A DNA stretch of 64,000 nt from Branchiostoma floridae. Taxonomy: Eukaryota; Chordata; Leptocardii; Amphioxiformes; Branchiostomatidae. The notes below the pieces were generated by a model that was not told where the DNA came from, did not search any database, and worked only from the letters and a program-made list of their open reading frames with translations. The stretch lies in assembly GCF_000003815.2 (NCBI RefSeq), contig NC_049983.1, forward strand, positions 8,318,157 to 8,382,156. Reading direction: 5' to 3'. The position numbers and the translations under genes were made by a program. Positions 652 to 49,279 of this stretch are shown here, one piece after another (positions within the stretch are counted from its first letter, which is position 1; each line of letters starts with the position of its first letter).

Positions 652-14771
<14,120 letters not shown>

Positions 14772-18500: not shown

Positions 18501-21500
18501 CAGTTCAAAGTAGGCCTTTCCAAGGTACCGTTTTGCTGAAGTAAAAGTGAAATAAAAAAAAAAAGACATTTCGTTTGCTGTATCTTTTTAGCTGGAGGCT
18601 AGCTATAGTATGGCCCAATGGTACTGATATTCATAAGGATAGCATATATTATGTCCATCCCATGAATTGGAAAAGCGATTAGTGGATACGATTCTTGATA
18701 TGTTGTATTTGAGATATGACTAACGTCTGCAAATTGCAGAATACACGTCTTCATCAGATTTCTAGATCATTATGAGGATGTGGCGCGTTGTTTACACCAA
18801 GTGACATTTATCTAGTGCAAAGCCACATACCTATTGCCAGTTGATATTTGTCTTCTCTGTTCAGAGCCTCGGTAGCGCGCACTGCCAGTTGGAAGATCTC
18901 CAATGCCTGCTCCGACTGCCCGTCCCTTCTAAGGTACATCCCGACAGCGTTGAACAGAGGAGTTGGGTCTTCGATTTGTTGTAAGCATTCCTCCTTCCTC
19001 GAGCACGTCTCGACGTCGGCTGTGCTCGTTTTCTTCCTCGGGAATTTCCGGACGACCTCGGAGACGGTCTGCCCGACGATGAGTGTGTTGGTGACGATGG
19101 AGTTGTACTTGATGTGTTTGTCGCGATCGTTGAAGGACACGAACATTCCAAGAGACACGGACGTGGCGTTGGGGAATATCGCCTTCAAGATTCTGATGCC
19201 GTTACTCAGAGCTAAGGTCATCTTCTGCGGCTTTTCCTTCAGGTCAGACCGAACAACCGTCTGTAAGAGCCTTGGTATAGTGAAGTACATCTTCTCCCTT
19301 TGGACGTCATCATTTTCTTCGGTTGGCATCTCGCCTGTTTCTTCCCCTTGGTGTCTTTTGATGAGAGAGTACCTCTCTAATCTCATTAGGATCGTGTTCA
19401 GGTTGTCCGAAATCTCGATTTCCGATACAGAGGAGCTGTTCTCTCCTCCTAGTAGCTCGTCTCTGAGTCTTGAGTCGGTCAGATTCACGGCTGCACGCAC
19501 GAAAATCCACTCCGGAATGGCCAAGTCAAGAAGGGAGCAGATCTCCAACAACTGGATTGCTGCAGGATGGTCCTTTTGCAGCTTCTCGGCACTGAGCAGC
19601 ATGCTGCTTTTCACGTTGATCGGCAGATCGCCGTGTTCCTCGCCAAGAAGGCCCGTGGTTTTCCGCCGGTACAGCTCTAGATATCGCGCGAAGGAGTACT
19701 TGTTGTACCTCATGTAGGCACCGGCTTTTTCTAACGCTAGAGGCAGTCCGTCGAATCCGTTTTTTCCTACAAGAGTCTGTAACGCTTTGTATTCGTCGGA
19801 TTTGGACTCTTTCAGTTCTGTGCGTTTAGATACGGCCTCTTGTAGAGTGAGGTCCCAACGGCGTCGGATCAGGAACAGTTCTGCTTCTGACTGGTTCAAA
19901 CCGGTGACATCGTATACCGCGGTGACTGTGCCGTCCCATACGCGCTTCCAGTCGGTGTAGTCAGAAGCGATGATGATGTGTCCGCCCTTCGGTAGGGAGG
20001 GGAAGTACTCCCGCACCAGGTCGGGACTGCGCACCCCGTTCAGGACCAGCATCCAGTTGTGGTTGGTCAACAGCCATTTCGTCACGACCCGCAGGATATT
20101 CTCGTGGGTGTAGTCTTTTAGTTCCAGAGACAGGCCGATATTGGCCATCTGGTGTGACGGACAAAAACAAACGTACAAAAATAATGAATATGGATCGGTT
20201 TAGTAAAAATGATACCAAAGTCTTCTGCAAGTTAAAATGGAGATGCCGTAAATCTATTGATTTGTATATCGTTTTATCCAGTGATATTTATCTTCAAGCT
20301 TGACTGTAACATTGAAGAGAGTTAGATATCTAGGTGAAAAGATATTCAAGCTAACACATACCCAAGCAACTGGACAGATTTATAAGCAGTTAGACGTTTC
20401 AGGTTGAATCCAATACCATCAGTGACAGAGAAAGCTTGAATGTGTTCGGCTATTACTATTCCGAACACCGCTACATGAAAATGACAGTTAAGAGGTGATC
20501 GGATTGTATGTAAGATTATCAAAGGACCGTACCATTTTCTCCAGCCCAACGTTGAGCCGTTGTCTGGAGGAGCAGGTGAGCCAGAAGATGCCTCCCCGAA
20601 ACCTGCCCTGGTGGTAGGATCTCAGCGCGTACTGGATCGCGATTTCCGTCTTACCGTACCCGGGCAGACCCGTTAGTACCTGCGGGAGACACATACATGG
20701 TGTTACATCATGAACCTGCCCTGGTGGTAGGATCTTAGCGCGTACTGGATCGCGATTTCCGTCTTACAGTACCCGGGCAGACCCGTCAGTACCTGCGGGA
20801 GACACAGAACATGGTAAACATTACATCATGAACCTGCTCTGGTGGTAGGATCTCAGCGCGTACTGGATCGCGATTTCCGTCTTACAGTACCCGGGCAGAC
20901 CCGTCAGTACCTGCGGGAGACACAGAACATGGTGTTACATCATGAACCTGCTCTGGTGGTAGGATCGCAGCGCATACTGGATCGCGATCTCCGTCTTACC
21001 GTACCCGGGTAGACCTGTTAGTACCTACGGAGACACAGAACATGGTGTTACATCATGAACCTGCCCTGGTGGTAGGTTCGCAGCGCGTACTGGATCGCGA
21101 TTTCCGTCTTGCCGTACCCGGGCAGACCCGTTAGTACCTACGGAGACACATACATTGTGTTACATCATGAACCTGCCCTGGTGGTAGGTTCGCAGCGCAT
21201 TCTGGATCGCGATTTCCGTCTTACCGTACCCGGGCAGACCCGTTAGTACCTACGGAGACACATACATTGTGTTACATCATGAACCTGCTCTGGTGGTAGG
21301 ATCGCAGCGCGTACTGGATCGCGATCTCCGTCTTACCATACCCCGGCAGACCCGTCAACACATGCGGGAGACACAACATGGTGTTACACCCAAAGAAGAA
21401 TAGTAATTACAAAATATATTTGTTTTTTTTTAATCAATTTTGGCTCTATGGCTCACAATGAGTAAAAATTAAATCTTCACCTTAACATTGTGCATTCAGG

Positions 21501-24500
21501 CCGTTTTGTTCCATACACATAAAGCAGTTACGAATGTAAATGTTTATCTTTCCATCAACTTTGTCTTTCCTTGTCATCTCTCGATATTTTTATTTTCAAA
21601 TCTCTGTAATACTTTTTATTTCATTTTACAGGGTATCAATTATTATCTCGGTATTTTGACTAACTTCTGCTTCTGTGCAGCGGTATAATTTTGCTTCTGT
21701 GTTGCAAATACTATATTTCAATGATGACTCAATACAACTAAAGACTTACCTGAACCAAAGTGTGACTTTTCATCTGCCCGTACCACATGGAGAAAAACCT
21801 GTCGTGCTCCGACTGCAACTTGCTGAGGTAATCCTCGTGGCCGGTGAAATAGGGCGTGGGGTAGGGCACTTCACTGAAGGGAATCCCAATACCTGGAAAG
21901 GTATAAAGTACGAGAGTGATTTATCAAAAATACCAAGATCGGTGTAGAAAAATATGCTCCAAGAACTTATATTTAGTAGTCTGGGAGGAAAAAACTTACA
22001 AAATTCCTAGCATACGTAGTCTCGTAGCATATCCTGTACATAATATACTAGTAGCCCAATATAAAAGAATGATAGCTTGAAGTCTCCTAATCATTTTGAT
22101 TAAGATATGTTGTTCTATAATTTTGTGAAGAACTTTCGATTTGTATAAAGAGACAAAGGAGGAATTTAGCTGACTAGTTCAGGAACGAATATCCTACCTT
22201 TAGGAACCCCCAAGACACTTCTCAAGCGCTCCTCCTCGGGAATGAAGCGTCCTATGAGGAAGACGGAGCACACAAACACAAGAGCAGCAAGAAAGGACAA
22301 GAGGACCACCCTCAGAACAGTGGGCGCGCTGGGAACAGGTAGTGGGTCCTCTGGTACCGGGGCGACAGGGACTGCAGGGGCGGGAGGGAGATCGTCTACA
22401 ACCGGTAGTGGTCGATCTCCCTCGTCGTACCGTGGTAACTCCGGCTCGGCGTCCGTGGTGAGATCTGCTGCGTCCGTCGCTACAATCAGATCCCACTCGC
22501 GCTCGTATCTCTTCAACGTCCACAACGGCACTCTCAGAGACAAGTCTCTACACGTGGTTTTCAACTCGCAGACGTTGTCCTCGGATATGACGCCCTTTTT
22601 GTCCAGCACCGTGAACAGTTCCCTGCCGTTGGTTACGCGTTCGAACTCGCCGACATGCAGGTGTGCTTTACACACGAACTTGAGTCTCTGGAAGTCTTCA
22701 CTGGTCAGGTTCTTACTGATGTAGTCCAGACAGAGCCTGTAGGAGACTGGTCGCGATCTTGAAGGAGAGTGTTGAGGATGTCCTATGCCAAGGTGACCTG
22801 GGAAACGGACAAAAGCTCATGTAACGCTAGCTCACCTTTTTCCGCGGGTAACCTATGTCCGTTGTTTCTGCAAACAGGGTGTGTAGGGGTACCAAATCAA
22901 CGAACGATGGTTTCAATTTAGAATACTTTCAAAATATCACAGTTTAAAAGCACCGTCCCTAGAGTTGATATCCCCAAATACCCTGTTTTAAAAAACAACG
23001 GACATAGGTTAGCCCGTGGATAAAGGGGAACAAGCGTTAACCTCTATGTCGGTTATCTTATAGATGCAAGTGCATCAGTATTACGTATTCAGGATTAGTA
23101 ACATTTGCCATCTTGATTATAGAGTATTTGATAAGTAATAAACTCTTGTCGTTCTTTTGGTACATTTACAATCAAGAGTTTGCGTATACCAGAACAAAAC
23201 TAAAAGAACCATTGCTGAATGTTGAACGTTAACTTACACAGAGCTAAGCTTATGCATCACAGATTGTAGAAATGAGTCCGAACTAATACATAAGATTAAG
23301 TTCTGCCAATGTATGAAGACGGTGTTGTACATAATTTAGTTATAAAAGTCGTTGGAACCTGTCTTTGTATTACCACTGTGCATGGTTGAATTCTGAAAAC
23401 AAGGAGCTAATAAAGTTGAGATGATTGGTGGAAAAGAAATGTACAGTAGCAAGAAAACAGCTGAAATGTTGGACAGCAAACGACCGTTTCTGATTTCGGA
23501 CAGTTACCGTTGCTGAGCGTTCTGAATGCCTCCTCCTCGGAATAAACATTCTCCCCTGTGTCCCCTTCCCGTCTGCGTGCAGCACGTACTCTGTACGTGA
23601 CGTCAGGTTCCAGGTTCTGTAGTCGGACGTTTTGTGATCCTGCGTGCATAGATACAAACATGTAATGTATCCGTAACGTAAAACCACAATCATGGTGCAG
23701 TTTGACAAATGGCAAATATCACCGTCCAAGATAAAACACATATCCAAGCGCTTATTTGTTTTGGCAATATTTGTCTGAATCATGATCAGTTCAGGTGTCA
23801 TACTTGGTGTCAGCCTTCTTATGGAGTTCCTACAGCATTATATCTGAAAGCATATACGTACGTGCAACCAAGACACTTGCTGGACTGACTGATGATGTGT
23901 CGCCTTCTCCAAGCAGATGCGGGGATAGAAATGCGTTTCTGACTGACTCGGCTTCTGACAGTCACTACCCTCCCGGTTTGTCTTGGGGTAAATAAGGATT
24001 GCCACAAAGCCCGGCCGATTAGAAACGTTCCACCATCTACCCAAAGATCTGCGTGTACATTAGGCCACCCTTATTCAATTTTATGGATGACATCCATGCG
24101 CGCATTGATTTTCGTCTGTGGCCACATGTGACCCAATAGCATACCCGGCCAATCAGATTTTTTTATGCTTGCCAGAAGATCTGCTCCCCATTATATTAAG
24201 GGGCACATGGTCATGGCATGGGGCCACCGTGCCCTTGTTCCCCTCTTAAAGAAGTATGGCAATAAAACACTATTGAAATGGCGACGATTGTCTAGTAGTA
24301 GTACAGCATTACTATAGATGATATAAACCAAGCCTGGAAAAGAATGGACTGGATGTGTAGTCCCGTGGTTTAACAACATTTTTTTGCCGGATTTTTCTTT
24401 TTTTTCGCCCACACGCATTAGCTTTGGGGTCTCCAGAGGATGTCATCCATAAAATGAAGTCAGTGTGGCCTTCGCTGCAAGTGTCGTACATACCTGCGTG

Positions 24501-34093: not shown

Positions 34094-36832
34094 CTTCCAC
34101 TACCACATCACAGGACCTAACAGTTCACAAAAGGCAGACAGTTGCGATGCACAACGATTCTCTTGACCAAGGTACGCTGCGACTTTCGCGTGCGGTCATC
34201 GGTTGGTGTATCTGGCTATGGATGAAGCGATGGAACCGATCGCTGGGCTACTAACACATCAAGCCTTTACAACTGAAGCGACTGTAACGGGGATGTAATT
34301 GCAGAGGGTGTTTGGTTACGGGTGAGTCGCCGTCAGAGGGGGGCCTTTCAACCTCTCTCTAAACTCTCCTTTGATTGGTTGACTCGGAGGGCAGCGGGGA
34401 TGGTATAAGCTTTAACATTGGCCGTGTTTTGATAGTGTGACTTTTCAGCAAATGATATTTTCTTTGGTTAGCAAAGTTGCAACAATGTTTTTCAGGGTCT
34501 AAGGGTAAATTTTGCCTTTAGGTGCAGTTTTTGCCTATGAATGGAATTAAACACACTTATAAGCTCTTAGGAAAGGGGTATAAACTATTTAGAATTCTGT
34601 ATCGGCAGACAGAATTTAACAATTATGATTGAATAATTGATTAAAGAAATCTTACGATTGTAATTAAGGGCTGTTCTTTGTAGACCAAATGTAATACAAA
34701 TATCATACCCAAGCGTAATAAAAGTCGTACTAAGAATTCGGAGGCGTGCGATGTCTTCATGCCTTGGCTAAAACACAATGTCACTGTTTGCGCGCCTCGG
34801 TAAGTTTTAAAACGTCCCACATCTGATACGTCTTTTTGTTGACCCTGGCCACTCCGTTGTCAATGGCGACGCTTACAGGTGCAGTCGCCCAGAACATATA
34901 TACAACTCAGGCCGGAATGGACGGGGCAAAACACTGCAAACACCATAGAATGTTGTAAGGATAGGTACATTGTATCTAGAATCAAAACATGTGCTACGCG
35001 AGTGTAATATAATACAGAAATGTTTAAAGGTTGACAGAGTGTAACTAGTTGATAGGTTGGTGTCCATTGTGACGCGATTATGTATGTTTTGAACGTAACT
35101 CTTTTTGAGATAAAATCTTTAAGAAGAACGTGTCTTATTTACTAATTGTGCCTTTACATGTTAAGGGTTTCTCACTGAAGTTGAGGTACGTTGGCGTCGT
35201 CGTTGTGTTCTAAATCAAATTTGTGTTATTCTTGAATCTATGATGGAAATATCTTGCAAAGCGTTCAAGTATGGTTTGAAAGACAGCAAAACACACAGAA
35301 CCTAAAAAGATTAAAATAATAATTTTTTTTTTATCAATGAAGTTCTTAAGACGGGGAACAACGGACGCTGAACCGTTTTATAATGAGTGTGTATGTGAAG
35401 TTAGAAGCCGCCAATTTACCCAATTGATTTAACGTTCAGGCACCAAATGCGACCGGTATGCTACCGTTGTGATTTGGTGATTTATTTATATTCATCTAGT
35501 ACGTACAACAGATGAAAAAAATCATCATACAGAAGAAGAAAGTATACAGGAGGAGGGCAGAAGCCTTATTATCTTCTTACATATTAGTTTCATGTGATTA
35601 GGTACATCATTAGTTTTCTAGTATCTGGATATGTCTACACTCAATAGCTTTTATTTGTTCTAAACGTACTTTGTATAGGAGTAAATTTGTATAGGAGTAA
35701 ATTTATTTCCGATTTGTATTGTATTTACATAGGGGTGACTAAAACTCTTTTTTTTTCTCGCTTTAAGCTTTTATTCAACATTATTATATAACACGCGCGC
35801 ACGGAACACCCGCCGCCTAACACCCGCCGGCCCACGAACCAGCTGGCCCCAACTATCACTTGCCTCTTTCGGATAGTTGGGGACCGGCGTATAAAGTGGG
35901 GCCAGCTGGTAGTGGGGCGGGTGCATAGAGGCGGGAGGGCGCGCGTTAGGCAGGGGATGGGTAACTCTTATTTGCGAAGCTTCTCGATCTGGTTTCCCAG
36001 GGTAAAGAAGTACATACATTTCAACTCCGAGTTCTCACTTATTTGCTTAATGGGCGCATACTGTCATTGATGAAGATAACCAGTCACACACAGACATACA
36101 CGTCCTTGGTGCTGAACACGATCTGCACATAGACAAACACACCCGTCTCTGGTGGTAATGACCACCATCTACATACAAGTAGATCGACCTATTAGCCCGA
36201 GTCAGGGCTGTAGAACTTCAGTTATCAATGTCAATTTTGGGGACACTTTCTACGTAATAAGATGAAGCAACTCTATTCCATTCCATACCAACATTCAAAG
36301 AGCAAATAATCGATGCTTCAGTGGCACGAAGACGTCGTGAAGTCTAAATCATGTGGGTTACAATATTTAGGGATTCCTAGCGCAGCTTGTTTCTGCACCG
36401 TTTTAACCAATCAGTATGAAGTATGAAATAATGATACATATGAAATAATTCATACAGATTGCCTCATCCATAATATTTCCTTTTAACGCTCTTAACGTTA
36501 TATTGCTTAGGTTGCCTTAAGTTTATTATTGCACCTTATTTCCACCACACCGCTGGCCAAATCCTGCTGACGGGGCAAAACTGTTTGTGTTTACTGACCC
36601 TGAAACGAGCCAAGTAGCTTGGCCTAGGTTTTCTGTAAACCCACTGACCTTTTACCTTTCAATGATTACCCATCATCCATATTGAGTTGCGTGCCAGCGT
36701 TTCGAGCTGGGTGTGTCTGACATAATTGTCTGAGACATAACAAACGAACGACGCATCAGCCAGTGTTCCAGGTGACACAAAATATTGGGGAAACATTGGA
36801 AGAAGAACAGAGGAACCCGCTATACTGCCATA
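34094..36832. other. Intergenic region between the divergent SAM and RIC3-like genes
   Basis: No exon was recognised. 34094-34450 should hold the SAM gene promoter. A 3' part of a GC-rich inverted-repeat element lies at about 35785-36005: GCGGGTG-type arms, TAGTTGGGG core, right end CTGGTTTCCCAGGGTAA. It is related to the complete element at 61704-61920. The rest is AT-rich with no visible gene. Confidence 0.5.
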
Positions 36833-38008
36833 ATGAAGGGATTGGACAACAGAGCCAGGAACAAGTACGCCTACGCACCCGAACATGTGCAGAGTATGCC
36901 ACCATTCAGCGTTTTGCTTGTTGGGGCTCTTCTTGTTATTCTCATAGCCGTTGGACTCCCATGGCTGTATTCCTCTCGATATCCTGATTCGTTGAAGAGC
37001 AAAGCAGCCGACAACATCAGGGCAAGAAATGCTCGCAACGAGCCGTCAGTCCACACGCATGTGGTGAGAGATGGTCGGCCGGGGCCGTTCCCCGGGGCGG
37101 CAGCACAGAGGGTGACCCGGCAACCCGCTCCCAAAGGCGCCCGGAGCATCATGGCGACCGTGCTACCGATCTACGGCATCGGCATTGGCGCGTATGTGCT
37201 GTTCACCATGTACAAGGTGTTCGGTGGGAAAGCTCAAGAAAATGACCCTTCTAGCAGCACGAAGAATTACAACAGCGTCAATGAGAGAGTGCGACGAAGA
37301 CAAGATAACAGTTGCAACAAAAGAGGCTTCTCCTTGTTTGGACAGAGGAAGAGGAAACAGAAGGGACGATTCAACCAAGAAGATCTAATGAAACTGAAAG
37401 AGAAGATAGCCGAGACAGAACAGCTGATGCAGAAGGCTCTAGCTGACATGGCCGCGACGGTGGAAAACGTAGCTGCAGAGGAGTTGAAGGGACAGTTTGA
37501 CAGTACACAAGGGGGTGGGGAAGGTGCTACACAAGGGGGTGGGGAAGGTGCTACACAGGGGGGTGGGGAAGGTGCAGATACAAAATCATCCTCTGAACAG
37601 GTGCAAAACAAAACAGCAGATACTAGTAGCCAGAGCCCTTCCAGAGCTGGGCGTGAGAGAAGGGATGAGATGGGATCAGATAATAGCTTATCATCTGCCA
37701 GAGATGTCAGTCAGATAAAGGGGGAGTTGGAAGAAGATAGCCCAGAGTTCGACCCTGCTACAGGTGAAACCCTTGCTACCAATAAATGTGATGAGGAAGT
37801 CAAGTCAGGTGTGTCAGATGATCATGACATGGAAGCATCTAGTGATGCAGCTGATAACAGCACAGATAAACCTGACATTGCATGTTTGGATGGTAAAGAA
37901 ATTATTGACGTGGAAGATTTAGGTTCAGACTCAGAGGGTGATGCTGTTTTAAGACATCGGAATGTAGATAAGTCAGAGTTGGACAAGTCCACTAGCCAGG
38001 GCAAGTAA
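36833..38008 (+). CDS. RIC3: RIC3-like acetylcholine-receptor chaperone, intronless
   Basis: RIC3 family members are ER membrane proteins that help nicotinic receptor subunits fold and assemble. The ATG at 36833 gives 391 residues. A hydrophobic segment lies at about 22-45 (MPPFSVLLVGALLVILIAVG; this internal Met could be the conserved start). A second, with the family signature LPIYGIGIGAYVLF, is at about 108-130. A basic stretch and a coiled coil (about 180-222, EDLMKLKEKIAETEQLMQKA) follow, then an acidic, low-complexity C-terminus. TQGGGEGA is repeated three times at 225-248 (24-bp DNA units, 37505-37576). Only one exon is seen although all neighbours are intron-rich, so it may be a retrocopy or have lost introns. 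The last ten codons and stop lie inside a transposon end. Confidence 0.82.
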   Translation: MKGLDNRARNKYAYAPEHVQSMPPFSVLLVGALLVILIAVGLPWLYSSRYPDSLKSKAADNIRARNARNEPSVHTHVVRDGRPGPFPGAAAQRVTRQPAPKGARSIMATVLPIYGIGIGAYVLFTMYKVFGGKAQENDPSSSTKNYNSVNERVRRRQDNSCNKRGFSLFGQRKRKQKGRFNQEDLMKLKEKIAETEQLMQKALADMAATVENVAAEELKGQFDSTQGGGEGATQGGGEGATQGGGEGADTKSSSEQVQNKTADTSSQSPSRAGRERRDEMGSDNSLSSARDVSQIKGELEEDSPEFDPATGETLATNKCDEEVKSGVSDDHDMEASSDAADNSTDKPDIACLDGKEIIDVEDLGSDSEGDAVLRHRNVDKSELDKSTSQGK

Positions 38009-42010: not shown

Positions 42011-45000
42011 TCAATAGAACTCCTCCTCTGATGACCCACTGTCCTCCGGCCTTGTGCCTGTTACGGAGTAGTACACTTCCGTCATCAGCCTCTCGAAGGC
42101 ATCGTCCACATTCTTAACATCTGCTGCCGAGGTCTCAAAGAAGTGCAGGGAGCTCTGTTTGGCGAAGTCCCTGGCTTCTCTGATGGGCACTGTTCTGATG
42201 TGGGACAGGTCACACTTGTTCCCAACTGGGATGAAGGAAAAGATACAATATAGATAAATCTTCACCACTTATTCCAGCTCCTATGACCACCACATCTGTA
42301 TCTACCACTTCCTTCTTCCCTCCAGTTTCAAAACTACCATTGATTGTTCATTCTTTATTTAAGGCGCCAATTGCCCCATAGTAAAACAAAAACATACATA
42401 ACTGTTACAGCAATGTGAATATATAAATATGTACAACATTTAAGAAAACAGAGAAACATCTATCTATATATTCCATCTTTGAAAATGTCTATGAAAATGT
42501 CTTTGAAAACATCCATGAAAAATCTTTGGAATAGAACATTTAAAATCAGTGGTGTTGTTAAAGTTTTAATCTGCTGACACAATGTCACAACAGTTTCTAC
42601 TGACAAACTAACATAGGATAACACAGTATATAAATGACGTAACTAGGTTTTTGAAAATATCCGTGAAAAAAAATGGAGTTCTAAAGAATTGTTAAAAAAT
42701 CTATTTCATTATATTCAGTTTTACCTGACTGACAGCTATCGCTATGTCTGGTGAGGCCAGAGGTTTAGTAGAAGAGTAGAGTAATTTTGCTATAAAAATT
42801 ATGTATCATCCATACATCATCTGTACATTTACATAAGGTCAGCTATCAAGACTGGCTGAAGACTGCCAGAGGACCTATGGGACTGGTGATGATAATATGA
42901 TATAAACTAATTTACAACAGAAAGCGTATACGTCAAGTCATTACCTAACATGACCACAATGCCCTGATCATCAGCATCTTCCTGTAGCTCCTTGAGTCTG
43001 TTCTGAGCATGCTCAAACGTTCCATGTCTGGTGATGTCATACACCAGGAAGGCCCCCACCGCTCCTCTACAGCAGGCACTGATGATGGGCCTACAGGACA
43101 CAACAGTACAGGTTAGGCTACAAGATGTCATACACCAGGAAGGCCCCCACCGCTCCCCTACAGCAGGCACTGATGATGGGCCTACAGGACACAACAGTAC
43201 AGGTTAGGCTACAAGATGTCATACACCAGGAAGGCCCCCACCGCTCCCCTACAGCAGGCACTGATGATGGGCCTACAGGACACAACAGTACAGGTTAGGC
43301 TACAAGATGTCATACACCAGGAAGGCCCCCACCGCTCCCCTACAGCAGGCACTGATGATGGGCCTACAGGACACAACAGTACAGGTTAGGCTACAAGATG
43401 TCATACACCAGGAAGGCCCCCACAGCTCCTCTACAACAGGCACTGATGATGGGCCTACAGGAGAGGGGAGATAACTACTGATTAATAACCTTTGACAAAG
43501 GACGTCCCTGTAGCTCAATTGGTAGCAGCCTCACAGTTATTGAGTGAAGCTCCTAGTTACATTTACTCTGCAACTGCTTCAATCCTGGGTTGGGCATCTC
43601 GGTTGGGGCTGCACCTGTCTTTTGGAGGGGATGTAAAATGTGCTCCCGTGTTCCAGGAAGTGTCTCAAGCATGTTAAGGGGAAAGTGCTAGCTACCCCTC
43701 CATGTGAAAGCATGCTCTGCTATTGAAACAGTAAGGAAACTTGCTTCCCTACATGTACACGTATTGGCCACCAGGGCTAGGCACTACAAAGGCTTGAAGA
43801 AACGAACAAATATTTAATAGGTTTCCAAGGATTGGTAGAAGAAAGCCATTCGGAGTTCCAGTGCATTCTTCATTCTGTGACTTAGACTATTTGCAACTGA
43901 AAACCAAACAAAATCAGATTGTTCATGGTCAAATTCCTCTCACATGGCAGAAATCACTGCACCACAGAAATACAAACTGTACGTGAACATAAAAAAATAA
44001 AACTGCACACGAAACAAAACAGCCAATCTTAATGTCAGGAGTTACAGGTATAATGAAAAAGATAATTGTAGACAGAGGTTTATGATTTTGATCAAGTTAT
44101 TGATTCCTACACAATTGAGAGTACATGTCCAGTAACAGCTGTGTAACTAACCTGTATCTGTCATCCCCTGCAGTGTCCCAGATCTGAGCCTTGATGGTTT
44201 TCCCTTCTATCTTCATGGTCTTAGTGGCAAACTCTATCCCAATGGTGGGCTTACTACCTGAGTCATACCTGCTAAATGCAAACCTGGGTGGGAAGAACAA
44301 CTGCATCATTTAAGATATAACAATATAACATACACATGTATGTGCAAAGGTATGCACACATAAAGGAGACATTACAAAAACTACATACATGCATGCTAAC
44401 ATAATGTATCTCTACTATTTCTTGTTTACAAGTAAAGCTCATTTGATGCAAAATTGGCTTTCACTGTTAGTATGAGATTCATAGAATTCCAACTACAACA
44501 ATATTTTAAACTAATGTACATTCATTCACATTGCGCATGATGTCACATTACGTATGGATCTTTGGGGTAAACCCTTTAGTTTATTGAGAAACTGATTTTC
44601 AAGTGAACTAGGGCTGGGAACCGGTACAGAAAATTCAGGTCCAGGTCCAGTTCAGGTCCATAGGATCAGGTCCAGGTCCGGACCTGAACCTGGACCTGAT
44701 TCAGTATGACTCATACCAATGGCCCATTTCACTACAAAGAAATCTGTTGGGTGGAGTATTAGACTTACACTGGCATTTTAAAATCCTACAACGCTATTTG
44801 CAACTGTGGAATTGGCTGTAAAATTTAGTAGAAGTTATTATAAACTCTACTCTACTTCACTCTTGTTATTTTCTTCCACCTACAAGTGAATGCCTGATAA
44901 AATAATCTGTTAATTTTCTAATCGGTCCAATATCCGGTCCACCTAATTTTTTCAGGTCCGGTTTTTCTGGACCGGTTCAATAAGAAAAAAACGGTTTTGT

Positions 45001-48000
45001 ACCGGTTCGTTGTACCGATACCCAGCCCTAAAGTGAACTCTACACAAACTCATATAGGGTTATGTAGATACAGGTTTTAGAATCTAAGAACAGACATAGA
45101 AAGCTTTCTACAAATTTGGCTAAAAAAAGATTTAGTTACCTTGAGAGAAGATTACTCTTGCCAACCCCAGAGTCTCCCACTATGACTATCTTGAAGGTGT
45201 GATCAGGCTCTGGGGGTGCTGGGCTCTCATAGTCAGCTGTCTCCGATTCTGTTCATAGAAAATATAACATTACCAATTGCCATATAATGTAAATTTTGTA
45301 CATGTACCATGAATTTATTATACAAGCAGTTTCTATGCGTAGAAGTCCACTAGACACAAGTTCAGGATCATCAGAATCTTGTTCTTCACATTCTATCAAT
45401 GTACATGTACTATCATTTACACCTAGAGCAGTACATGTATATCCAGAATATCACATTGGTACAAGTCACCTGCAGGTTGCTCCGGACTCTCTACAGCTGA
45501 GTTGTCCCACTCAAGTCCTACTGCCTCATCCTCGGGCATTTCTCCTGGAAAAATGATTATCATTTACATAGGATACAGATTATAATCAGGAAGAGAAGCG
45601 ATCCCTCGTCTACAGAAACTCTAATCAGGATAATGGTAGAGTGATTCTGACAGCTTACAATCTCTATCGTGACATATGGATATGAAATTTCAATGTGTAA
45701 CAGTTACAGATTAAAACACAGAAGTCCCCATCCATACCTTCCATGAAGTCCAGCGAGTCCAACACCTCCCTGACCTCCCCCAGGTCCACATTGACAGGGC
45801 GGAAGTGTTCAGTGATTCCAGCGTGCAGGGGGTCTGGGGAGGCCACGTCAAGGATCCTGGCAAGTGGTAATATAGGAACATATTATAACTGTGACTACTT
45901 ACATGTAAGTAACATACTTCCCAATTAAGATGTAAATGACAGCTACCAGCAAAATGTGAATTAGATGAGGCTAAAAAATCATCCCCACACTACACATGGT
46001 GGTGTTGATGGCAGCGCCTATCTCTGATTGGAAGCCCTTGGGCCACACAGCTTTATGCAATGACTACAACAGGGGGTTACTCCACTGGTAGTGGTGTGTG
46101 TTTGACTACCATACTCTTTCCCAAATGCCGAGCGCTAAGCAGAGAAAGCAGAATGTACTAAACTACATAATATAGCAAAATCTTAGGCAGTCTTTGGACG
46201 GGAGACCTGGCACATCCCCGTCTTGTAATTAGCCAGCGAAAGGGCGGTATAACCCCGTCGTGTGTAAACATGTGCGAACATGTGTGATCACGTCGACCGA
46301 TGATGATGATGATGAGTCTTTGGTATGACTTGGCCGGGAATCAAACAATTACCTTCCATTGACAGCTGCTGCTGTCTGTAAGAAGCAGGCGGGGTCCTTC
46401 TCCTTCAGAACCATGCCTCCCAGCGCCACCACACCTATCCCATGGTCCATCTTCTCCTGGTAACGCTCGATGTGCGACTTCAGCACTGACAGCTTCTCGT
46501 TACGCTCGTGGTCGATCGTGTCCCCAAGGACCTGCAACACGGAAAAACTTAAGAACTGAGAAACCAAAGACAAATAGCCTGAAGAAATCCTTCACATATA
46601 CAGTGTGCAAAATACCCACTTGCACACTTACACATTGCAACCACTTTTTGCTTGGTGCAACTTACTTCTAAACTCAGGTTGCACAGGGTGCAACTTAGAT
46701 TTTGAGCCTCAGACCTCGATTTTGTTGTCAATTTACTAATAGAAGGAATCAACCGGACCGAGGCAGCTCTGTTTCATATCAGCCAAACATGTCAGTAATT
46801 GCAGATTTCTTGGCAGATGGACATTTTTAATAGTGAATTGTATGTGGTGCAACTTGAAATTCAGTTGTGCAACCTAGTTTTTGCCCCAGGTTGCACACTG
46901 TGCAACCCGGATCAGAAAAGTATTTTGTACTCAGCATATAAAGCAACATCCGAACTAGCACATGTGTTACAAACTGTGAGTACATCCAAGATGTTTAGAC
47001 AACAGCTAGTGAAACACATGCAAAACCCAGCTAGTGGCACATGAGGGACTTGATAACTTTGATAAGGCACATGCGTTTTTTTTAATGATTTTTGAATGAC
47101 ATGTTATATGCTGTGTATGTCGTGTGTCCAAGTGTTATGTGGAATTATTACTCCTGGAGGAGTAGATGTTGCGGTGGTAAGCTGTCAACAACTAAAGGAG
47201 TAAATAAACAATAAACAATAAACCTGCTTCTTCTTCTGTAGTGTAGAGATGAGCGAGTCGAGTTCCACGAACAGGGACGACTTGTGACGGGAGGCGTTCT
47301 CCTGTAAATCAATGGAAAACGGATCAATTAGCTTCTAAATGAGGATATAATGCAATTATGTTATCATTAGCTGAAATAATGACATCTGATGGTTGTAATA
47401 CAGTGTTCTACAGTCTTGTTGTTCTGCCATTAATTCTTTTATCGAAAAATAAAACGTATCTGCATTATTACCTTCGACAGTAAGTTGTGGCTGTGTATGG
47501 ATTGTTCTTTGTAGAAAAAAAAAGCAGTTTAACTTGAAGGCCTGACACGTGATATTCTATCATGGGCCATCTGTCCTTTTTTTCTTAATTATTTACAGTT
47601 ATGTTACTTAAGATATGTTGCTTCATTTGGGACTTACTTCAATGCCAATGATATGTTTTTAACACAATTACATAGTATATACCATGCTTATGTGCAACAT
47701 CCCTACATAACATAGTCAATGTATCTGGCTCTTGACTGGTGGCAAGTTTATTGCATTTAAAGAAACTGATGAAGGTTTGAATATTCACAGGTTAGTGATT
47801 GCATAGCTTAGCCAAGGAGATACGTAATCCTGACTGCCTATCACAATTATCAATTTAGGCAATAAGAGGATGGCAATTAGTGGTTTGACCAATGAGAAAG
47901 TGGCTGCATGTCCATGAAATATTTTCATTGCTATTTTGTTGCTCTTCATTATGACAAAGGTGGGATAGGCTATATGACTACAGTATTGCCAATACCTACA

Positions 48001-49279
48001 CAGACAAGCTGGTACATGGCCTGTAGCAGTTGTATTCCCTTCTCATAATCTGTGATCCTCCAGGCCAGGTTCTCTACACTGGTCCTCAGGATATCCTGTT
48101 GGGCAGGGAACAATGTTTCCTAATGATAGTGCAGCAGCAAATCAAAGTAACAAGATTCTACAACAGTTTTGGCACATAAAAATACATCTATCATTACAAG
48201 CTTGTCAATACGAGCAAATACTGTGTTGATTACCCTAGTATAAATAGACATGATTAGATACACTAGATTGGCTATTTGGCACACCAAGTTTAAACTTTAA
48301 TTTAGGACGCATATATGATGACGAGAAACAAAAACTACAGTCCTTTTACCTAATCATATACTTACTGGTGCACAAGCAGTGCCTTGGGACCTCCAAACAC
48401 CAATTGACAAAAGAAGGAATGTATTGCCAAAGGGTAGTCATACCGGTTTAGAGACTGATAGTGATAACGTTAGAGATAAACTTTCCTAACGACCATATTA
48501 CTTTTCAAAGTGTTCTGAATCTTTTAATGTCACGTGAAATTAGTATTGGCAAATTCATCAATGGATACCTCTTGCAATTAATACAACATAGAATAATAAA
48601 TGAAAATTTTAATATTTTTAGAGTTTGTACATTAAAAATACCATGTTACCTTCATTTCCTGGTACATCTCGGGCAGTTCTACCACAGGGTGGGCGGAGTG
48701 CCTGCCGTCCGACTCCGTACACCGCGGACAGATGATGGTCTCATCCGACACGCAGTACAGACTCAGCTTCTCCTCGCCGTGGTCCTGACACTTCGGCGTC
48801 TTCGGTACCGTCACTGTCAGCGGGTCTACAAGACGGTGCTTCACGAAGGCTTTTCTCGAGTGCACCGCCGTGAGACATTTGTCACAGAAGGAGAGCTCGC
48901 ATGTGACGCAAGTTTTCACCGCGTCTGCTGCCGGGCTTTTCTCGCAGACTTCGCAGGCAAGGTTGCCGTCAGAAGAGCGAGCTGTAGCGGCTTCGGTACC
49001 TTTAACTCTTTCGATGATATTTTGGAGGGTAAGGTTTGGGCACAAGCAACGCAAACCCCTGTCGTCTAAAAACACGGCGTTTTTACACTCGGGGCAACTG
49101 AAACATCGGTCGGTTTCTTCGGATGATTCGGGGTTAGCAGGGGTTTTGGATGTACCGGAGGAAGCTAGGAGGTTGTAGGCACACTTGCAGCATACGCTGT
49201 GTCCACAGGGAAGGAGAAGCGGCGAGGAAAACAGATTGTTGCAGTACGGACAGGAAAGCTCCCGCTCAAGCGCCTCCAT
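42011..49279 (-). CDS. TRIM9-like E3 ligase fused to a Rab11-like GTPase (592 aa, 10 exons)
   Basis: Exons in transcript order: 49279-48650, 48095-48000, 47301-47224, 46531-46353, 45856-45738, 45544-45470, 45248-45140, 44283-44152, 43090-42945, 42225-42011. All are GT-AG, phases fit, and one frame is open throughout. RING (Cys from residue 10, CPYC ... CGHSVCCKC ... CPEC, with the long inter-Cys insertion and LDDRGLR of TRIM9/67); B-box 1 ([13 protein letters not shown]); B-box 2 ([14 protein letters not shown]); coiled coil (about 211-330; [11 protein letters not shown] matches TRIM9); COS box (about 330-378); acidic linker; then a Rab domain at 409-580. Rab motifs: GDSGVGKS (417-424), [38 protein letters not shown] proteins transfer ubiquitin; COS boxes bind microtubules; Rab11 acts on recycling endosomes. 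The usual FN3-SPRY end is replaced by the Rab. The C-terminus SSEEEFY has no prenylatable Cys. Confidence 0.88.
43091..43461 (-). repeat. Four extra tandem copies of the Rab exon head (91-bp units)
   Basis: Units start at 43127, 43218, 43309 and 43400 and match the head of exon 42945-43090 plus the intron end and acceptor CTGTAG. Each keeps coding sequence for [19 protein letters not shown], then reads TTG TAG, a stop. The three inner units are almost identical; the outer one differs at several bases and is probably older. Confidence 0.95.
43497..43640 (+). repeat. Possible tRNA-derived SINE head
   Basis: CTGTAGCTCAATTGGTAGCA resembles a tRNA A-box arm (TAGCTCAATTGG). The B-box region is degenerate and no cloverleaf is evident, so this is at best a SINE relic, not a tRNA gene. 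Confidence 0.35.
44609..45030. mobile_element. hAT-like MITE with 8-bp target duplication (opposite orientation)
   Basis: Same family as 7810-8242, inverted. The ends are TAGGGCTGGGAA and TACCCAGCCCTA and it is flanked exactly by AAGTGAAC at 44601-44608 and 45031-45038. It sits in the intron between the two exons that encode the P-loop and switch I of the TRIM-Rab gene. Confidence 0.93.
45990..46345 (-). repeat. SINE-like sequence with a nested insertion
   Basis: AGTCTTTGG occurs at both edges (about 46191-46199 and 46314-46322) of an inserted segment that starts ACGGGAGACC and ends in a GAT repeat, consistent with retroposition into an older element. The older part ends GGCCGGGAATCAAAC, which resembles an inverted tRNA B-box. 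Confidence 0.45.

What the first reader, a model, noticed from the sequence alone, without database searches (positions are those of the whole stretch)
42011..49279. TRIM9-like RING/B-box/COS protein fused in frame to a Rab11-like GTPase
Ten exons join through matching phases into one 592-residue frame. The first about 380 residues follow TRIM9/67 motif by motif (LDDRGLR after the RING, two B-boxes, a coiled coil with [14 protein letters not shown] box). The FN3-SPRY half is replaced by a whole Rab domain closest to Rab11 ([36 protein letters not shown]). The only TRIM-GTPase fusion I know is TRIM23 with an ARF domain. A Rab version would be an independently evolved ligase-switch coupling, possibly linking ubiquitination, microtubules (COS) and recycling endosomes. 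I know of no description of it, but could not search.
Basis: partly seen in the sequence, partly recalled or inferred. Interest (0 to 1): 0.9.

Follow-up and report, generated by a model that had tools for sequence, protein, structure and literature searches.

The report
Lancelet ubiquitin ligase fused to Rab11
This lancelet genome carries two related genes that each join a microtubule-type ubiquitin ligase to a Rab11-like membrane-traffic switch lacking its usual lipid anchor, a combination that resembles the human protein TRIM23 but appears to have arisen separately.

Summary
The fusion gene is real. Ten minus-strand exons (49279-42011) join with GT-AG borders and matching phases into 592 codons: RING, two B-boxes, coiled coil/COS, linker, Rab. 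The decisive evidence is a second gene of the same architecture 3.2 Mb away on the same chromosome (C5:5189187-5179969; 592 codons, 45% identity), so the fusion predates the duplication. No third copy appeared among the scored matches. In the window gene the Rab exon cannot start alone: a stop lies just upstream in frame and no Met precedes the P-loop. The Rab half belongs with Rab11/Rab25 (99/98 support). The TRIM half is a COS (C-I) TRIM; it scores closer to MID1 than TRIM9 (226 against 144 bits), but its place is unresolved. Likely mechanism (inferred): a GTP-gated, lipid-free Rab11-like arm replaces SPRY in a COS-TRIM E3 ligase. Transcripts and other species could not be checked.

The parts
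48650..49279 (-). Exon 1: start codon, RING (C10 C13 C25 H27 C30 C33 C62 C65), B-box 1 and B-box 2; ends phase 0
   Evidence: 8 of 8 RING and 8 of 8 B-box 1 ligands shared with the paralogue, 7 of 8 in B-box 2 (ligands assigned by pattern, from recall)
48000..48095 (-). Exon 2: coiled coil, 96 bp, phase 0-0 (the lancelet MID-like gene also has a 96-bp, phase 0-0 exon here)
47224..47301 (-). Exon 3: coiled coil
46353..46531 (-). Exon 4: coiled coil and start of COS ([19 protein letters not shown])
45738..45856 (-). Exon 5: COS box second half (..[13 protein letters not shown]); ends phase 1
45470..45544 (-). Exon 6: linker exon, acidic, 75 bp, phase 1-1
   Evidence: the paralogue has a 78-bp phase 1-1 linker exon in the corresponding place
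45140..45248 (-). Exon 7: end of linker and Rab P-loop GDSGVGKS; no Met before the P-loop; in-frame TGA just upstream of the exon
44152..44283 (-). Exon 8: Rab switch I (PTIGIEF) and G3 WDTAGDD (Asp at the Rab11 catalytic Gln position)
42945..43090 (-). Exon 9: Rab from RYR^PIISA to V^GNK
42011..42225 (-). Exon 10: G4 NKCD, G5 ETSA, acidic C terminus SSEEEFY without cysteine; stop
43033..43462 (-). Tandem array, period 91 bp, 4.7 copies at 98% match: intron end, 3' splice site and first ~60 bp of exon 9. The four upstream copies run into an in-frame TAG; only the last continues as exon 9

Best explanation
A fusion gene encodes a COS-type (C-I) TRIM E3 ubiquitin ligase whose FN3-SPRY arm has been replaced by a Rab11-derived GTPase; a paralogue shows that the fusion was fixed before a duplication. 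Proposed mechanism: the TRIM coiled coil dimerises the protein and the COS box holds it on microtubules. The Rab domain binds GTP but cannot be prenylated, so it does not act as an ordinary membrane Rab. [quoted passage not shown] The window copy, with Asp for the catalytic Gln, is predicted to hydrolyse GTP slowly and stay 'on'; the paralogue keeps Gln and may cycle. Shown here: gene structure, architecture, second copy, Rab11 descent, no C-terminal prenylation motif, the Gln-to-Asp change, zinc ligands and G motifs in place. Inferred: that one transcript is made, E3 activity, microtubule binding, nucleotide binding, effector capture, GTP gating.
For: Ten GT-AG exons in phase, 592 codons. Paralogue on the same chromosome: 11 GT-AG exons, 592 codons, 45% identity. 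Identical intron positions and phases after B-box 2, on both sides of a 96-bp coiled-coil exon apart from none shifted there, at the COS R^ site and at RYR^P; same phase (1) on both sides of the linker exon, though there the positions differ by about one codon at the COS border and about 11 residues at the Rab border. Searches of the whole assembly with each protein listed only these two places with both halves close together (76 and 75 matches; only best candidates are scored). Join introns of 221 and 148 bp. Frame upstream of the first Rab exon closed by TGA with no ATG between, in both genes. No FN3/SPRY found at either locus. Third codon positions differ more than first and second in the RING, B-box, coiled coil/COS and Rab stretches (overall 0.62 against 0.41 and 0.34). 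Rab tree: FUS1+FUS2 97/96, with Rab11/Rab25 99/98; best solved relative Rab11B 211 bits, Rab1A 140. TRIM23 precedent: PMC5794181 passages. C-I TRIMs bind microtubules through COS: PMC11359181 passages.
Against: No RNA evidence. One AATAAA lies in the 221-bp join intron of FUS1 (45319; about 1.08 AATAAA/ATTAAA per kb on this strand), none in the paralogue's join intron, so a truncated TRIM-only product is not excluded. The paralogue has Met codons in its linker exon and a split ATG at the linker/Rab join, so a Rab-only product from it is not excluded. In FUS1 all three RING models score below their cut-offs; in FUS2 two of them pass. The linker is not conserved in sequence (13.8%) and, like it, shows little third-position excess (0.79 against 0.76 and 0.62). 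FUS2 has one cysteine 17 residues from its end, not in a known Rab prenylation position (recalled rule). COS function, E3 activity and effector binding are untested.
Confidence: 0.5

Rival explanations
1. Two neighbouring genes: a truncated COS-TRIM and a Rab11-like gene, wrongly joined by the exon chaining.
For: One AATAAA in the join intron of the window copy; linker not conserved in sequence and the linker/Rab border about 11 residues apart in the two copies; paralogue linker exon contains Met codons.
Against: Same order, and same phases at the borders of the linker exon, in a 45%-identical paralogue 3.2 Mb away. Join introns of 221 and 148 bp leave little room for a promoter and first exon. 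In the window copy no in-frame ATG precedes the P-loop on the Rab side. No AATAAA/ATTAAA in the paralogue's join intron. Chance of at least one such hexamer in 221 bp at the strand's rate is about one in five (my arithmetic).
Confidence: 0.04
2. The Rab half is a degenerate pseudo-GTPase that acts only as a fixed scaffold, with no nucleotide switch; the COS-TRIM half does the work.
For: Q to D at the catalytic position in FUS1; P-loop GDPGVGKT and DTSGQQ in FUS2; YYRGA of Rab11 is CCRGA or FCPGA; no terminal prenyl cysteine in either; longer branches than Rab11.
Against: All five G motifs (GxxxxGK[ST], switch I Thr, DxxG, NKxD, ETSA) are kept in both copies. The Rab half is the best conserved stretch between them, 56% against 38-46% for the three TRIM stretches counted. 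IGIEF of switch I is identical in both.
Confidence: 0.25
3. A membrane-traffic ligase: the Rab domain takes the protein to recycling endosomes as a Rab would, and the RING ubiquitinates endosomal cargo there.
For: Rab11 descent; FUS1 switch I close to Rab11's ([13 protein letters not shown] against SKSTIGVEFATRS).
Against: No cysteine in the last 15 residues of either copy, so the normal membrane anchor is missing; endosome binding would need effectors or other contacts.
Confidence: 0.2

Closest known systems
TRIM23 (ARD1), with a C-terminal ARF domain
   Same: RING, two B-boxes and coiled coil followed by a small GTPase of the Ras superfamily at the C terminus; the normal lipid anchor of the GTPase is absent (for TRIM23 by position, recalled).
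   Different: GTPase is a Rab11 relative, not an Arf (Pfam Ras 170.7 bits against Arf 45); the TRIM part is of COS type; the Rab part shares no intron position with the lancelet Rab11 exons read, whereas TRIM23's ARF part has virtually Arf1's exon structure (PMC8358228 passages).
MID1/MID2 (TRIM18/TRIM1) and other C-I COS-TRIMs (TRIM9, TRIM67, TRIM36, TRIM46; list recalled)
   Same: RING-B1-B2-CC-COS order; best solved relative of the TRIM half is Midline-1 (88.8 bits); 36% identity to recalled MID1 over a 386-column match; introns after B-box 2, around a 96-bp exon, and (FUS2 only) FLQ^T shared with the lancelet MID-like gene.
   Different: No FN3 or SPRY found; Rab domain instead.
Rab11 / Rab25
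   Same: Clade with 99/98 support. Rab25 also departs from Gln at the catalytic position (Leu; recalled sequence).
   Different: Fused to a TRIM, no terminal prenyl cysteines; FUS1 58-60% and FUS2 49-51% identical to human and lancelet Rab11.
Large Rabs: Rab44, Rab45/RASEF, Rab46/CRACR2A
   Same: Rab domain in a large multidomain protein with coiled coil (PMC8303950 listing and passages, PMC7645795 and PMC7893075 listing).
   Different: EF hands rather than RING/B-box; Rab44 and Rab45 are placed among Rab8 duplicates (PMC3425129 passages), not Rab11; a prenylation site is reported for mouse RASEF-S.

Membership tests
TRIM/RBCC ubiquitin ligases | RING, one or two B-boxes, coiled coil, in that order | tested here: met
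   Pfam B-boxes over cut-off in both; RING below cut-off in FUS1 (3 of 3 models), over cut-off for 2 RING models in FUS2; 8 of 8 RING ligands present in both; TRIM_CC E 9.8e-05 in FUS2, below its cut-off, and not listed for FUS1
C-I (COS) TRIMs | COS box after the coiled coil | tested here: met
   Alignment to human MID1 runs to MID1 residue 379, through the COS region as I recall it (recalled sequence); [13 protein letters not shown] and the downstream block are kept in FUS2. No COS profile was run
C-I (COS) TRIMs | FN3 and SPRY at the C terminus | tested here: not met
   tblastn with three C-terminal queries: none in window or paralogue locus, found in the lancelet MID-like gene
TRIM9/TRIM67 | Groups with TRIM9 in a tree | tested here: inconclusive
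   Lancelet and human TRIM9 pair at 99/99 without the fusions; forced grouping not rejected, p-AU 0.22
MID1/MID2 | Groups with MID1 in a tree | tested here: inconclusive
   MID1 is the nearest row outside the pair, by path, and scores above TRIM9; forced grouping with MID1 and the C10 gene marginally rejected, p-AU 0.0475
Rab11 subfamily | Clade with Rab11/Rab25 against other Rabs | tested here: met
   99/98 on 16 rows, nine of them human sequences from recall; PDB ranking Rab11B 211, Rab25 172, Rab1A 140 bits
Rab GTPases | Five G motifs | tested here: met
   Kept in both copies
Rab GTPases | C-terminal prenylatable cysteine(s) | tested here: not met
   C termini SSEEEFY and DVDSMFD; no cysteine in the last 15 residues of either; FUS2 has one 17 residues from its end
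TRIM23 | C-terminal ARF-family GTPase domain | tested here: not met
   Ras profile 170.7 bits against Arf 45 in FUS1; 177.8 against 55 in FUS2
TRIM23 | E3 activity coupled to GTPase cycling | not testable with these tools
   needs biochemistry

The most novel reading that the evidence does not exclude
An old and so far undescribed family of ligase-switch proteins: a COS-TRIM whose substrate arm is a lipid-free Rab11 domain, evolved independently of TRIM23, duplicated and kept in lancelets as one slow/locked (Asp) and one cycling (Gln) form, coupling ubiquitination on microtubules to Rab11 effectors.
Probability: 0.4. Interest if true: 0.78.

Novelty: new variant of a known kind. Interest (0 to 1): 0.64.

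Why it matters
TRIM23 is described as unique among TRIMs in joining an E3 ligase to a small GTPase (PMC5794181 passages). A second, separately built TRIM-GTPase, with a Rab in place of an Arf and without the lipid anchor, would show that this coupling can be reached more than once. It gives a natural comparison for how a GTPase gates a ligase, and a pair of paralogues that differ at the catalytic residue.

Tried and rejected
Rejected: TRIM9 as the specific parent, for lack of support (the tree test does not exclude it); a local misassembly or chance chaining (second locus); FN3-SPRY exons nearby that could be an alternative end (none found); a third or haplotype copy (none among the scored matches).

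Led nowhere: paper searches for the fusion (0 papers in five of them, and 1 coral-annotation paper that I judged irrelevant from its title and abstract start and did not open). One search (MID1 with Rab11) gave 17 papers; I saw the 10 listed, then passages of one (PMC11359181). A guessed DOI returned a plant paper. Of Marin 2012 (PMC3503706) I saw the abstract and passages; of Sardiello 2008 (PMC2533329), Klopper 2012 (PMC3425129), PMC8303950, PMC5794181, PMC8358228 and PMC11359181 the listing where listed and passages. The whole word Rab does not occur in the main text of the two TRIM surveys. Klopper's B. floridae 'RabTitan' is described as only very distantly related to Rabs. Klopper says three Rabs have an additional domain and names two in the passages seen; I did not find the third. 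Structure prediction was not run, because a spliced protein is not given letter for letter by the window. Genomes of other animals are in none of the collections I could scan, so the phyletic spread is untested.

Known flaws: the 593-residue query and the 225-residue query carry one extra Leu from my first exon 8 border, corrected; one search is unaffected. One search returned nothing because the locus files are bundled; it was repeated correctly. misread one lancelet Rab11 exon border; one search uses the corrected one. In one search two of six lancelet GTPase loci tried (L005, L007) gave no usable frame and were dropped, and two others of the eight held (L002, L008) were not tried. In one search eleven lancelet TRIM loci were pieced from tblastn matches; hits at C1:9.29 Mb and C17:7.22 Mb and many weaker ones were not included. 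That no other place holds both halves was judged by eye from the lists.
Full report
The observation. The window lies in a 513-Mb assembly of 431 contigs. On the minus strand, ten exons from 49279 to 42011 join with GT-AG borders and matching phases into 592 codons. My first pass gave 593 because of a wrong exon 8 border. Pfam places two B-boxes and a Ras-family domain over their cut-offs in the one protein, with three RING models below theirs. By pattern all eight RING ligands are present, and they are invariant in the paralogue described next.

The second gene. Searching the whole assembly with the protein gave 76 matches. Two lay 7 kb apart on the same chromosome at 5.18 Mb: one to the TRIM half (43% identity) and one to the Rab half (60%). 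Reading that stretch gives an 11-exon, 592-codon gene on the minus strand, C5:5189187-5179969, with all borders GT-AG. I call the window gene FUS1 and this one FUS2. They are 45% identical overall: RING 38%, B-boxes 46%, coiled coil and COS 45%, linker 14%, Rab 56%, tail 24%. Intron position and phase agree exactly at the end of exon 1, after the 96-bp exon 2, at the COS R^ site (phase 2) and at RYR^P (phase 2). The linker exon is phase 1-1 in both, but its borders do not align exactly: about one codon apart at the COS side, and about 11 residues apart at the Rab side, where FUS2 has a shorter lead into the Rab domain. Other introns have moved or been gained or lost. At 104 four-fold sites of shared residues 74 differ, near saturation, so the duplication is old or fast. 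A search with FUS2 gave 75 matches and, judged by eye, no third place holding both halves; the tool scores only its best candidates, so a faint copy could be missed.

One gene or two. The introns at the join are 221 bp in FUS1 and 148 bp in FUS2. In both genes the frame above the first Rab exon reaches a TGA without an ATG. In FUS1 no Met precedes the P-loop on the Rab side. In FUS2 an ATG is split across the linker/Rab junction and the linker exon has internal Met codons, so there a Rab-only product is conceivable. FUS1 has one AATAAA in its join intron, against about 1.08 AATAAA/ATTAAA per kb on that strand; FUS2 has none there. No FN3 or SPRY was found in the window or in the 18-kb FUS2 locus, although the same queries find both in the lancelet MID-like gene at C10:16.24 Mb. 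I conclude that the fusion is a real gene (about 95%), with no RNA evidence available.

The Rab half. The best solved relatives are Rab11B and Rab11A (211-203 bits), with plant RABA1a among them, then yeast Ypt31/32, Rab25 (172) and Rab1A (140). In a 16-row tree FUS1 and FUS2 pair (97/96) and join Rab11 and Rab25 (99/98); nine human rows were typed from recall. FUS1 is 60% identical to lancelet Rab11 over 157 columns, FUS2 51%. All five G motifs are kept. Two departures matter. Neither protein has a cysteine in its last 15 residues (FUS2 has one 17 from the end), so ordinary Rab prenylation is not expected. FUS1 reads WDTAGDD where Rab11 reads WDTAGQE, replacing the catalytic Gln with Asp; FUS2 keeps Gln (WDTSGQQ). 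Lancelet Rab11 (C3:12.149 Mb) has introns at V^VLIG, TSA^YY, FA^EKN and LT^EIY, none shared with the fusions. That fits capture of an intronless copy or a long separate history; I cannot tell which.

The TRIM half. The best solved relative is Midline-1, B-boxes 1-2 (88.8 bits); B-boxes of other C-I TRIMs may not be in that collection. Against recalled human sequences FUS1 scores 226 bits to MID1 and 144 plus 52 to TRIM9; FUS2 scores 214 to MID1 and 124 plus 39 to TRIM9. The lancelet has a clear TRIM9 of its own at C1:9.27 Mb. The tree of 15 rows pairs FUS1 with FUS2 (100/99) but does not place the pair: forcing it with TRIM9 gives p-AU 0.22, with MID1 and the C10 gene 0.0475. Intron positions shared with the C10 MID-like gene mark it as C-I, but the first is probably common to TRIM9 too, since the lancelet TRIM9 match ends at the equivalent residue. 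So 'TRIM9-like' should read 'C-I (COS) TRIM, nearest MID by score, position unresolved'.

How it may work. C-I TRIMs bind microtubules through COS (PMC11359181 passages). TRIM23 ubiquitinates its own ARF domain, which drives GTP cycling and partner activation (PMC5794181 passages). By analogy I propose a microtubule-held E3 in which a lipid-free Rab11-like domain replaces SPRY as a GTP-gated partner-binding arm. FUS1 would be slow to switch off, FUS2 would cycle. Steps shown: architecture, descent, missing anchor motif, catalytic change. Steps inferred: everything about expression, activity, location and partners. I give this explanation as a whole 0.5.

Known or new. TRIM23 is described as unique among TRIMs in having both activities, and the ARF domain is reported in only one human TRIM (PMC2533329 passages). 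A survey of ARF proteins notes other fusions of ARFs with ubiquitination-linked domains, BTB and F-box (PMC8358228 passages), so the kind has precedents outside TRIMs. Six full-text searches for a TRIM-Rab or lancelet Rab11 fusion gave no paper in five cases and one unopened, apparently unrelated coral paper in the sixth. The whole word Rab is absent from the main text of two TRIM family surveys. The library holds only open-licence papers, and automatic database annotations were not searched. I file it as a new variant of a known kind: a TRIM-GTPase fusion, Rab11 version.

Noticed in passing
43033-43462 (-): A 91-bp tandem array (4.7 copies, 98% match) duplicates the 3' splice site and first 60 bp of exon 9. 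Upstream copies, if spliced in, would end the protein at an in-frame TAG before the NKCD motif; copy number may vary between individuals.
   Followed up: partly
36776-38005 (+): Open frame with a RIC3 domain (Pfam E 1.8e-14): nicotinic receptor chaperone homologue near the fusion gene, on the other strand.
   Followed up: no
22169-22816 and 18811-20199 (-): Open frame with a death effector domain near a 463-residue open frame that looks to me like an NB-ARC-type protein, though Pfam gave no match for it.
   Followed up: no
L043, about 6281-6398 and 7977-8114 (C3:12.151 and 12.153 Mb): Lancelet Rab11 may have two alternative last exons, each with a cysteine pair near its end; the first was read by eye only.
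   Followed up: no
C9:13.643-13.658 Mb (L022, L023, L029, L035-L037): A cluster of four closely related COS-like TRIM genes (100/100 in the tree) with open frames of 247 to 569 residues.
   Followed up: no
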